Positions 1,379 through 4,578 of a stretch of 41,870 nt of DNA are shown in pieces; positions within the stretch are counted from its first letter, which is position 1; the number at the start of each line of letters is the position of its first letter. Both the position numbers and the translations under genes were made by a program. This DNA is from Thermococcus sp. (lineage in GTDB: Archaea > Methanobacteriota_B > Thermococci > Thermococcales > Thermococcaceae). Under the pieces are notes generated by a model. That model was not told the origin of the DNA. It searched no databases and was given only the letters and a program-made list of their open reading frames with translations. The stretch covers positions 1 through 41,870 of the forward strand of contig NZ_WANV01000025.1 in NCBI RefSeq assembly GCF_015521605.1, in the 5' to 3' direction.

Positions 1379-1980
1379 TCAGAGAAGCACCTTCATCGCC
1401 TCGTAGCCCAGCTCAAAGGCCTTAACATTGGCCTCCATTGCTTTCTCCGGTACGCTGGCCTTCACGGCTTCGAGCATGGCCTCTTTGTCTATCGGGAAGT
1501 CCGGCAGAGCTGTCAAAGCCCCCACAAGGACGACGTTCTGGGCCAGTGCAGTTCCGGCCTCTTCGGCCAGCTTGAGGGCGTCTATCTCGTAGAGCTTAGC
1601 TCCAGACTTTTTGATGTTTTCGACTATCTCATCGTAGGTCACGTATTTGTCTATCTTACCCTTCACGAAGTTCTCGGTCTCGTAGGGGTGGTGTATGAGG
1701 CGCGTGTTCGTTATCACGGTCCCCTCGGGCTTCAGGAAGTATATGTACCTCAAGGCCTCCATGGGTTCGAGGCGACCTTTTCATTGGCGGCGATTTCGAC
1801 AACAATGTCGTCGCGGTAGTGGGAGACCCCCTCAACGGTGTCGAGAATCTCCGTCTGGGGCGAGCTGGGGTAGAAAGCTGTCACCTTGACGTCGGCCTCC
1901 AGGGCAGCCCTGACAATCGCTTCGTTGGTCAGCATGTAGCCCACATGGGGCTCCTCCTTCAGAACCTCTTTTAGGGACAT
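1379..1980 (-). pseudogene. Deletion remnant of an indolepyruvate oxidoreductase-like iorA-iorB pair
   Basis: Two pieces are joined. From ATG 1980 to about 1773 the frame encodes about 70 residues resembling the N-terminus of an IorA-type alpha subunit (FYPSSPQTEIL, then ANEKVA). From about 1771 a different frame encodes 127 residues matching the C-terminal two thirds of an IorB-type beta subunit (EPMEALRYI, then NVVLVGALTALPDFP). The iorA frame stops at 1750 just past the junction, and the iorB frame has lost its N-terminus. The simplest explanation is one internal deletion removing most of iorA and the start of iorB, joined out of frame near 1771-1773. The enzyme normally oxidises aryl-pyruvates to aryl-acetyl-CoA with ferredoxin; neither piece can do so. 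Good frames on both sides suggest a recent event. Confidence 0.8.
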
Positions 1981-2145: not shown

Positions 2146-2625
2146 TCACGGGATATTCGATTCTATAGTCTTTATCTCTTCGTCCAGGATGTCTCGTATC
2201 TTCTTCAGAAGCTCCAGGTACTCTTTGACGGCCTCTTTGTCCATCCCCTTTTTCTCGCCAAGGGCGTCGAGCTTCTTCTTGAGGGCCTCGTGATAGTTCA
2301 CAGACGTGTATAGAACCCGCAGAGCAAGATCGTTCGAGACCTTCAGATACTCGAGCCCCTTCGGGGTGAGACTGTACTTGACGCGCCTCACCCTCCCGCG
2401 GTACTCCTCCCTCGGCTCCAGAAGGCCCTCCTCAACCATCTTGCTGAGGAGGGTGTAAAGGTTGCTGTGACTCGGCTTCCAGAGGCCGATTGCAAGCTTC
2501 TCAAGCTCCTTAAGTATCTCGTAGCCGTGGGCCTCACCCTTAAGCCCAACTATCACCAGGATTATATCCTTCAAGGGGACAGTAAACAACCCCTTGATGA
2601 TTCTGCGTTCCACGTCAGTTCCCAT
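2146..2625 (-). CDS. PadR-family transcriptional regulator
   Basis: The N-terminal winged helix has the PadR signature: a K-G-E-A-H-G-Y-E-I-L run, the S-N-L-Y-T-L-L-S-K-M recognition helix and a wing with R-G-R-V-R-R-V-K-Y. The C-terminal half is a charged helix suited to dimerisation. I chose ATG 2625 (159 aa) because GGGTGA sits just before it; an in-frame ATG at 2640 would add five residues. It lies about 120 bp downstream of the oleate hydratase gene on the same strand but has its own TATA (minus-strand TTTATAAG near 2662-2670). PadR proteins are usually repressors responding to small molecules, often of the adjacent gene. The ACAT array in front of the hydratase is an obvious candidate target, but that link is inference. 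Confidence 0.85.
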   Translation of the reverse strand: MGTDVERRIIKGLFTVPLKDIILVIVGLKGEAHGYEILKELEKLAIGLWKPSHSNLYTLLSKMVEEGLLEPREEYRGRVRRVKYSLTPKGLEYLKVSNDLALRVLYTSVNYHEALKKKLDALGEKKGMDKEAVKEYLELLKKIRDILDEEIKTIESNIP

Positions 2626-2681
2626 TGTTTTCACCCGCATTTTGAAACTATCTGTGAAACCCTTATAAAAGCATCTTCAAC

Positions 2682-2742: not shown

Positions 2743-4416
2743 TCACAGCCTTCCGGCGAGATAAAGCATCATGGTGTGCTTGAACAGCTCCTTCTTGTCG
2801 TTGTCGACGAGCGTCTCTATAGCTTTCACCAGAACAGGGACCTCCTGATAGGGCGTGTGCGCCGGTGGAACCTCCCTGCCGAGGTCTAAGAGGCTGTAGA
2901 CGCCCATCATGGCCGACTTAACCGAATACTCGACGGTGAAGACACACTCACCGGGTATCTCGACATACTGGCCCATCAGGGCAAGGTTGGCATAGTTCTC
3001 CGGGATGACTGGTGGCCTGTCGCCGGGCTTCCTCGGCATGAAGTGGGCGGTGATATAAGGCATCATGGCCGTGCGGACGTTAATAACAGTCTCCATGAGC
3101 TCGTCCTTCTTCTCAAGCCAGCCGAGGTGGTAGAGAAGCTCCAGGAATATCTCCCTGCCCGTGGCCTGGCTCATCGGCTTCTTGATGTAGTCTCCCTCCC
3201 TGTCGACGAACAGCCCATAGCCCCAGAGGACGGTAACGTCCTCCGGCTGGTTCCTGAAGTGCGGCTGCCTGAAGGCCACGATGGACATCAGCCATGAGGA
3301 GTCCCTGAAGGTAACCAGGCCCCCGGTTCCGGTCCTGTTGCCCGTGAACTCCTCGAGCATCTTGAGGAACTTATCTCCCTTGAAGGTTATCGTGAAGGAC
3401 TCCCACTTGGTCTTGTCGATGTCGCCCGCGAAGACGTCGGGGTTTCCGAGGGACGGGTCCTTCTCGACGAGCTTTCTCCAGAGTTTCCAGCTGTCGCCCT
3501 CGCCCCTGTTGAGAACCGGCGGGTGGTCGAGGTCGCCGTAGGTGGAGTTGTCCACCATCGAGCCGAGGGTTATGAAGACGAGGTCCTTCTCCCCGACCTC
3601 TATGACACCCTCACCGTTCTGACCCTTGGTGTAGAGCCGGGTGATGTACTTCCTGCCGTCCCTCTCGGTTATCTCGACGTCAACCACCTTGGTTCCCATT
3701 ATGAAGTTGACTCCCCTCTCCTTGAGCCACTTCTGTATCGGAAGGATTATCGAGTCGTACTGGTTGTAGGGAGTCCTCTTGACGCCCTCTATCCTGTTGA
3801 GGCCGGGGACGAGGTGCATGAAGCGGAGCATGTAGCGCCTCATCTCGGCAACGCTGTGCCAGGGCTGGAAGGCGAACATCGTGGCCCAGAAGTACCAAAA
3901 GTTCGTCTCGAAGAAATCCTTGGAGAACCACTGCTCTATAGTTATTCCGCCGAGCTTCTCCTCAGGCGTCATGATGAGTTCGTTCATCTCGTTGAGGTGC
4001 CGGAAGGTCAGCCCGTATTTGCTGAAGTCCACCTTTTTGCCCGGCGTTCCGACGAGGCGACACTTGGAGGAGCCAACGTACTCCTTATTGAACTCCACAA
4101 CCTCGTCGAGGATGGTCTTCTCCGGGTCGTCGAGCGAGGGGATGCTGCCGAGGAGGTCCCAGGTTGCCTCGTAGTGCTCCTCGAACATCCTGCCGCCCCT
4201 GAGCAGGTAGCCGTTCTCCGGGTCGCCGGAGCCGTCAAGGCAGCCGCCGTTGACCGGGGTCTTCTCGATTATGTGGATGTTCTCTCCAGGCATTTTGGCG
4301 TCCCTTATGAGGAAAACCGCCGCCGCAAGGGAGGCTATGCCGCCGCCTACCATGTAGGCCTTCCTCTCTTTGATGTCCGGTATCTTCCTGGGGGTTACGC
4401 GCTTGTAGTTTAGCAT
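2743..4416 (-). CDS. ohyA: Oleate hydratase (myosin-cross-reactive antigen family)
   Basis: This 557-residue protein fits the FAD-binding fatty-acid hydratase family across its length. There is an FAD Rossmann motif (VGGGIAS, residues 23-29), the family loop RGGR (73-76), SIPSLDDPEKT, the YNQYDS motif carrying the proposed proton-donor Tyr, and a conserved C-terminal region (AMMPYITAHFMPR, then YSVKSAMMGVY). Characterised members add water to the cis-9 bond of oleate to give 10-hydroxystearate. In the RGGREM motif of the common enzymes the residue after RGGR is Glu, thought to activate water; here it is Met77. From memory, a minority subgroup also has Met there. ATG 4416 follows GGTGAGG; a GTG at 4425 is less likely. 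Archaeal membranes lack acyl chains, so the substrate may be environmental fatty acid. Acquisition from Bacteria is likely but not shown. Confidence 0.93.
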   Translation of the reverse strand: MLNYKRVTPRKIPDIKERKAYMVGGGIASLAAAVFLIRDAKMPGENIHIIEKTPVNGGCLDGSGDPENGYLLRGGRMFEEHYEATWDLLGSIPSLDDPEKTILDEVVEFNKEYVGSSKCRLVGTPGKKVDFSKYGLTFRHLNEMNELIMTPEEKLGGITIEQWFSKDFFETNFWYFWATMFAFQPWHSVAEMRRYMLRFMHLVPGLNRIEGVKRTPYNQYDSIILPIQKWLKERGVNFIMGTKVVDVEITERDGRKYITRLYTKGQNGEGVIEVGEKDLVFITLGSMVDNSTYGDLDHPPVLNRGEGDSWKLWRKLVEKDPSLGNPDVFAGDIDKTKWESFTITFKGDKFLKMLEEFTGNRTGTGGLVTFRDSSWLMSIVAFRQPHFRNQPEDVTVLWGYGLFVDREGDYIKKPMSQATGREIFLELLYHLGWLEKKDELMETVINVRTAMMPYITAHFMPRKPGDRPPVIPENYANLALMGQYVEIPGECVFTVEYSVKSAMMGVYSLLDLGREVPPAHTPYQEVPVLVKAIETLVDNDKKELFKHTMMLYLAGRL

Positions 4417-4429
4417 ATTCCTCACCTTA

Positions 4430-4465
4430 ACATGTCTTTATTATACATGTCATTTTCTAACATAT
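4430..4465 (-). promoter_or_regulatory. Triple ACAT(G/A)T operator array of the oleate hydratase gene
   Basis: ACATGT at 4430-4435, ACATGT at 4445-4450 and ACATAT at 4460-4465 are spaced exactly 15 bp apart. Each neighbouring pair also reads ATGT-N9-ACAT, close to the ATGT-N8-ACAT layout I recall for PadR operators. The array lies between the likely TATA (TTTTTAAG on the minus strand, about 4474-4485) and the start codon, covering the predicted transcription start, as expected for a repressor. The PadR protein encoded just downstream is the natural candidate. Confidence 0.6.
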
Positions 4466-4578
4466 CTTGCTAACTTAAAAATATTTCGGAAGCAGTTCAT
4501 TAAGACAGGTCCGTAGAGTAGTGTGAAACATCACAAGCACTCGAAGAATTCAGGATAAGTGGATCCAAAAAAGAAAGC

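What the first reader, a model, noticed from the sequence alone, without database searches (positions are those of the whole stretch)
2743..4465. Oleate hydratase in an archaeon, with Met replacing the usual Glu
A full-length member of a family best known from bacteria stands in a Thermococcales genome whose own lipids have no acyl chains. The residue after the RGGR loop, Glu in most characterised enzymes, is Met77, while the YNQYDS motif and FAD site are intact. This could be a variant subgroup with altered water activation, used to detoxify environmental unsaturated fatty acids.
Basis: partly seen in the sequence, partly recalled or inferred. Interest (0 to 1): 0.7.

Follow-up and report, generated by a model that had tools for sequence, protein, structure and literature searches.

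The report
Thermococcus oleate hydratase under PadR control
A heat-loving archaeon carries an ordinary full-length fatty-acid water-adding enzyme of the already known methionine type, and its promoter carries the same rare DNA switch site that in related species controls a lipid-type export pump, which points to a defence against toxic fatty substances.

Summary
The ORF is real: window 2743-4416 (-), 557 aa, a full-length oleate hydratase (MCRA family) with Met77 where characterised enzymes mostly have Glu. On the tree Met and Glu types need a single change, so Thermococcus need not have 'replaced' anything.

Two findings go beyond it. (1) ohyA is an accessory gene. It is in 12 of 61 Thermococcus genomes, usually inserted inside a racemase-cupin gene pair. 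The window's genome has that pair intact and carries ohyA elsewhere, 92.6% identical to the copy of a species whose flanking genes are only 73-80% identical: recent transfer. (2) All 12 promoters carry ATGT-N9-ACAT at -32. The exact palindrome CATGTC-N7-GACATG occurs 32 times in 61 genomes: 10 at ohyA, 22 between a PadR regulator and an MMPL/RND pump. The window's ohyA sits next to that PadR's orthologue. This resembles S. aureus FarR/FarE fatty-acid efflux, with an added hydratase. I infer an inducible lipid-detoxification regulon. Substrate, inducer and DNA binding are untested.

The parts
2743..4416 (-). ohyA, Met-type oleate hydratase, 557 aa (stop codon included)
4186..4188 (-). codon of Met77, aligned with EmOhy E122
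4431..4449 (.). operator-like palindrome nearest the gene (ATGT-N9-ACAT at 4432-4448, starting at -32 from the ATG)
   Evidence: same place and spacing in 12/12 carriers
4447..4463 (.). second, overlapping ATGT-N9-ACAT (starting at -47)
   Evidence: also in G022 and G044
4475..4481 (-). TATA-like box TTTTTAA at -65
   Evidence: at -62 to -65 in all carriers
4420..4426 (-). ribosome binding site GGTGAGG
   Evidence: conserved in most carriers
2146..2640 (-). padR, orthologue of the PadR gene that is divergent from the MMPL pump in other Thermococcus
   Evidence: PF03551; 73-86% identical to those PadR proteins

Best explanation
ohyA encodes a genuine FAD-dependent unsaturated-fatty-acid hydratase of the Met type. 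It is an accessory gene that came into the genus Thermococcus by transfer and still moves between its species. It is under a resident PadR repressor that also governs its own gene and a divergently transcribed MMPL/RND exporter. Proposed mechanism: free unsaturated fatty acids or similar amphiphiles from other organisms enter the ether-lipid membrane; PadR binds them or otherwise senses the stress and leaves the ATGT-N9-ACAT operators, which lie at the expected transcription start of ohyA and between padR and MMPL; the pump expels the lipid, and OhyA adds water to its cis double bond, giving a less membrane-active hydroxy acid. Met77, with Val380 in place of EmOhy Thr436, works as in OhyRe, where Met is needed for full activity. 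Shown here: family, fold, promoter anatomy, shared operator, PadR orthology, insertion site and transfer between species. Inferred: DNA binding by this PadR, inducer, substrate, reaction and detoxification.
For: Full family match and fold. Catalytic Tyr, R76 and FAD motifs kept in all 12 carriers. ATGT-N9-ACAT occurs only twice in the window, both in the ohyA promoter, expected 0.08; it starts at -32 in 12/12 carriers with a spacer of exactly 9. The longer exact palindrome: 32 sites in 61 genomes, reversed control 0; 10 at ohyA, 22 between padR and MMPL. MMPL family confirmed. PadR operators are ATGT/ACAT with spacers of 8-10 (PMC3506622, PMC5428041). A divergent regulator/RND-MmpL pair for unsaturated fatty acids is known: FarR/FarE (PMC12671165). 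Transfer. OhyRe M77E loses activity (PMC8403116).
Against: No binding, expression or enzyme data. Two pocket positions of EmOhy differ (T436 to V380, N438 to F382), so the headgroup or substrate may differ. The window's padR has no ATGT-N9-ACAT of its own, and no MMPL lies on this contig. MMPL/PadR also exists in genomes without ohyA, so the pump's role does not depend on it.
Confidence: 0.6

Rival explanations
1. The PadR/MMPL/ohyA regulon answers some other hydrophobic stress (solvents, isoprenoid breakdown products, antibiotic-like compounds), and the enzyme hydrates an alkene that is not a free fatty acid.
For: PadR-family repressors often serve drug and phenolic stress (PMC3506622, PMC5428041). 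EmOhy T436 and N438, part of the substrate site, are V380 and F382 here; EmOhy with these two and Q265 changed to Ala turned over esters better (PMC8403116).
Against: Q219, Y195 and H386 are kept. All other Met-type proteins sampled also have Val at 380, and OhyRe of that kind hydrates oleate (PMC8403116).
Confidence: 0.2
2. The protein acts on the cell's own unsaturated isoprenoids (polyprenols, unsaturated archaeol), for lipid adjustment and not for defence.
For: The host's lipids have no acyl chains (established knowledge); isoprenoid double bonds are the only abundant internal alkenes.
Against: Absent from 49 of 61 Thermococcus genomes and from all other Thermococcales searched; it comes and goes as an accessory gene; the promoter is shared with an exporter and a PadR gene.
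Confidence: 0.08
3. Met77 marks a protein without hydratase activity, for example one kept for flavin or lipid binding.
For: EmOhy E122 / SaOhy E82 is described as activating the water (PMC8403116).
Against: OhyRe with Met is active, and M77E lowers its activity (PMC8403116, PMC8994360). Met and the other active-site residues are kept in 12/12 Thermococcus proteins and in 39/39 Met rows.
Confidence: 0.07
4. The palindrome belongs to another transcription factor, and the position of padR beside it is incidental.
For: The PadR gene in the window lacks the site in its own promoter; no binding data.
Against: 22 of 22 sites away from ohyA lie between padR and MMPL, and the half-sites are those of known PadR operators (PMC3506622, PMC5428041). 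The relocated window copy lies next to padR.
Confidence: 0.12
5. ohyA in this window is a contaminant or a misassembly.
For: Its place beside suf genes and padR is unique among carriers, and the usual site is empty in this genome.
Against: The sequence is distinct from every other copy (96.4% at most) and has its own promoter with two intact operators. Other Thermococcus carry the gene, some on chromosomes assembled as single contigs (G014, G022). The genome is 99.7% complete with 0.7% contamination.
Confidence: 0.03

Closest known systems
OhyRe, oleate hydratase of Rhodococcus erythropolis (HFam3, PDB 5odo)
   Same: Met at the same place (also numbered M77), Val at the EmOhy T436 position, same fold (VIA Z 46.5, rmsd 1.5 over 505).
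   Different: OhyRe has a long FAD lid and GxxxG (PMC8994360) and no C-terminal extension; the window protein has the short lid, GGxxxG, a C-terminal extension, and lies elsewhere on the tree.
SaOhy, EmOhy and LaOhy (HFam11 and HFam2; PDB 7kaw, 4uir, 4ia5)
   Same: About 40-43% identity, closest by fold (VIA Z 49), short lid, C-terminal extension, catalytic Tyr.
   Different: They have the catalytic Glu, and Thr at the V380 place; the window protein has Met and Val.
FarR/FarE, the unsaturated-fatty-acid efflux system of Staphylococcus aureus
   Same: A regulator gene divergent from an RND/MmpL pump gene (PMC12671165).
   Different: FarR is TetR-family, here PadR; FarE-type function of the Thermococcus pump is untested; no hydratase is named as part of the FarR regulon in the paper read.
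LmrR/LmrCD of Lactococcus lactis
   Same: PadR-family repressor of its own gene and of a multidrug pump; ATGT/ACAT operators (PMC5428041).
   Different: The pump type differs (MMPL here), and no hydratase is involved.

Membership tests
Oleate hydratase / MCRA family (PF06100, NF010584) | Full-length profile match above the curated cut-off | tested here: met
   697 bits over positions 2-495 of 495; 745 against 567 bits
Oleate hydratase / MCRA family (PF06100, NF010584) | Oleate hydratase fold | tested here: met
   model pLDDT 88.7; VIA Z 46-49 to solved members, next family 24.6
Oleate hydratase / MCRA family (PF06100, NF010584) | FAD-binding motifs and catalytic Tyr (EmOhy Y241) | tested here: met
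   G24xG26, E51, GGCLDG; Y195 invariant
Oleate hydratase / MCRA family (PF06100, NF010584) | Hydration of oleate | not testable with these tools
   needs the purified enzyme
HFam2 and HFam11 | Glu at the EmOhy E122 position | tested here: not met
   Met77
HFam3 | Met in the activation loop | tested here: met
   Met77
HFam3 | Extended FAD lid of 25-27 residues with GxxxG | tested here: not met
   short lid with GGCLDG, 22 residues where OhyRe has 34 in the compared stretch (PMC8994360)
HFam3 | Groups with OhyRe on the tree | tested here: not met
   OhyRe lies among other Met rows; Thermococcus joins the Glu clade side
Any HFam of the HyED database | At least 62% identity among members (PMC8403116) | tested here: inconclusive
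   best relative outside Thermococcus about 53%; HyED itself and HFam1, 4-10 not held
PadR-regulated gene | ATGT/ACAT inverted repeat with a spacer of 8-10 in the promoter | tested here: met
   spacer 9 at -32 in 12/12 carriers; twice in the window, expected 0.08
PadR-regulated gene | Binding of the PadR protein to the site | not testable with these tools
   needs gel shift or footprint
FarR/FarE-like efflux pair (PadR/MMPL genes of other Thermococcus) | Regulator gene divergent from an RND/MMPL pump gene | tested here: met
   22 sites in 22 genomes; PF03176 E 1e-65
FarR/FarE-like efflux pair (PadR/MMPL genes of other Thermococcus) | TetR-family regulator | tested here: not met
   the regulator is PadR-family, PF03551, so it is not filed as FarR/FarE

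The most novel reading that the evidence does not exclude
Archaea whose ether lipids lack acyl chains run an inducible defence against foreign unsaturated fatty acids: one PadR sensor controls an MMPL exporter and, in strains that acquired it, a Met-type hydratase. The hydratase moves between species as a promoter-operator-gene unit that plugs into the resident PadR circuit.
Probability: 0.45. Interest if true: 0.68.

Novelty: new variant of a known kind. Interest (0 to 1): 0.5.

Why it matters
No oleate hydratase from an archaeon had been successfully expressed by the 2021 review (PMC8403116), and the most stable of four bacterial enzymes compared melts at 54 C (PMC13422127), so a Thermococcus enzyme is a natural thermostable candidate and a test of how Met-type hydratases activate water. 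The shared operator turns a vague 'perhaps detoxification' into a testable claim about how archaea whose own lipids have no acyl chains meet free fatty acids. The empty and filled insertion sites make it a clear case of an accessory gene moving together with its regulatory site.

Tried and rejected
A Met-for-Glu change as a Thermococcus invention: rejected as novelty (PMC8403116, PMC8994360) and not required by the tree. Membership in HFam3: rejected (lid, motif, tree). One vertical archaeal clade: rejected by AU tests. Thermococcus as sister of the Alicyclobacillaceae sequence L017, which would make Met a parallel change or reversal: not rejected (p 0.12). Conserved suf or PadR neighbourhood of ohyA: rejected, the window's arrangement is unique. 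Remnants of ohyA in genomes with odd racemase-cupin gaps (G019, G033, G070, G023, G029): none found. Two searches with a locus as centre failed. Literature searches for a Thermococcus oleate hydratase or an archaeal PadR/MMPL pair found nothing relevant.

Full report
Observation. The reading frame is real and complete: window 2743-4416, minus strand, 557 residues from an ATG that follows GGTGAGG. It matches the whole Pfam MCRA profile (697 bits) and passes the NCBIfam oleate hydratase cut-off (745 against 567 bits). The residue after RGGR is Met77 and aligns without a gap with EmOhy E122. The tyrosine in YNQYDS is not the published catalytic one: EmOhy Y241 maps to Y195 here, which is invariant in 79 of 79 rows. 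The FAD motifs are present.

What is already known. Reviews state that the catalytic Glu is a Met in about 30% of family members, mostly in HFam1, and in the HFam3 enzyme OhyRe, where the residue is also numbered M77; changing it to Glu lowers activity (PMC8403116, PMC8994360, PMC13422127). Archaeal members are on record (about 2% of entries, PMC11669549), none expressed successfully by 2021 (PMC8403116). The headline of the finding is therefore known biology in a little-studied host.

Place in the family. I collected relatives from Thermococcales (12 of 94 genomes, all in one genus), from 393 genomes of the phylum of a Methanoregula relative, from bacteria and from plasmids. In the main tree (79 rows, loop columns left out) the Met/Glu state needs one change. 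A second tree with more near relatives gives the same. Thermococcus is one clade (100/100), joined to the Glu clade with 100/98 and 99/97 support in the two trees, but its order relative to L017 and the remaining Glu rows is open. It combines the Met loop with a C-terminal extension that nearly all other Met-type proteins lack. Met goes with Val380: all 39 Met rows have Val where 33 of 40 Glu rows have Thr (EmOhy T436, a substrate-binding residue; PMC8403116). It is not HFam3, because the lid is short, the motif is GGxxxG and the tree places it elsewhere. The archaeal sequences do not form one clade (AU p 0.003 for the Met-type archaea, 5e-6 with Methanoregula added).

Structure. The AlphaFold model (pLDDT 88.7, pTM 0.90) matches solved oleate hydratases far better than any other flavoprotein (VIA Z 49.0 to 7kaw, rmsd 2.1, 549 aligned; 46.5 to OhyRe; next family 24.6).

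Where the gene sits. In nine other carriers ohyA begins 96-98 bp from a divergent gene of the Asp/Glu racemase family. Eight of these have a cupin gene on the other side, and the ninth contig ends there. Two more carriers (G054, G064) keep the cupin side only. In 38 genomes without ohyA the racemase and cupin genes lie about 2-21 bp apart in one direction, so ohyA was inserted into an operon-like pair. The window's genome has this pair intact on another contig, 8 bp apart (C16:67289-67978 and 67987-68328), while its ohyA lies between sufD and padR. Its ohyA is 92.6% identical in DNA to that of G048 (81.5% at third codon positions), whereas six flanking genes of the two genomes are 73-80% identical (44-55% at third positions). 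This is the largest excess among the pairs compared and indicates recent transfer between species to a new site.

The promoter and a regulon. Upstream similarity between carriers is confined to a TATA-like box at -62 to -65 and a palindrome just before the ribosome site. The palindrome core ATGT-N9-ACAT starts at -32 in all 12 carriers; no other spacer from 5 to 14 occurs there. In the window this core occurs twice in 41,870 bases, both in the ohyA promoter (expected 0.08). The longer exact form CATGTC-N7-GACATG was sought in all 61 Thermococcus genomes: 32 sites, with none for the reversed control. Ten are at ohyA; the other 22 lie between a divergent padR gene and an MMPL-family transporter gene (PF03176, E 1e-65). 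The window's PadR is 73-86% identical to these PadR proteins. ATGT/ACAT with a spacer of 8-10 is the known operator of PadR-family repressors, which control detoxification and drug efflux (PMC3506622, PMC5428041). In S. [quoted passage not shown]

Interpretation. The best reading is an inducible lipid-detoxification circuit in Thermococcus: PadR holds down its own gene, an exporter and, where acquired, the hydratase. The operator in the ohyA promoter lies where transcription should start, about 25 bp after the TATA-like box, so simple blocking is likely (inference). What the circuit senses and what OhyA hydrates are not shown. The pocket differences at V380 and F382 leave room for a substrate other than a free fatty acid.

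Limits. There is no experiment. The trees cannot say which way Met/Glu changed, since the root is unknown. The transfer into Thermococcus has no identified donor. The MMPL gene of the window's genome was not located.

Noticed in passing
L255-L259 (racemase-cupin junction in G019, G033, G070, G023, G029): The junction into which ohyA inserted also holds other DNA (0.6 to 2.4 kb) in five genomes without ohyA; in G029 the last 28 codons of the cupin gene are duplicated beside the racemase gene. It looks like an insertion hot spot.
   Followed up: partly
window 1379-1980 (-): A 76-aa IorA-like N-terminal piece and a 127-aa IorB C-terminal piece lie next to padR, like the remains of a deleted indolepyruvate oxidoreductase pair.
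   Followed up: no
L155 and L168 (G209), L153 (G277): Decayed oleate hydratase genes with stop codons in two genomes of the phylum of Methanoregula.
   Followed up: no
L108, L110, L119, L121, L126: Met-type oleate hydratase genes on bacterial and cyanobacterial plasmids lie beside P-type ATPase or metal transporter, stress protein, chloride channel or phosphoketolase genes, which suggests a general stress island.
   Followed up: no
window 3277-3279 (codon of V380): Val at the EmOhy T436 position accompanies Met77 in 39 of 39 Met rows, against Thr in 33 of 40 Glu rows: a second marker of the Met type.
   Followed up: partly
L084: Two oleate hydratase genes in tandem in a Microbacteriaceae genome.
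   Followed up: no
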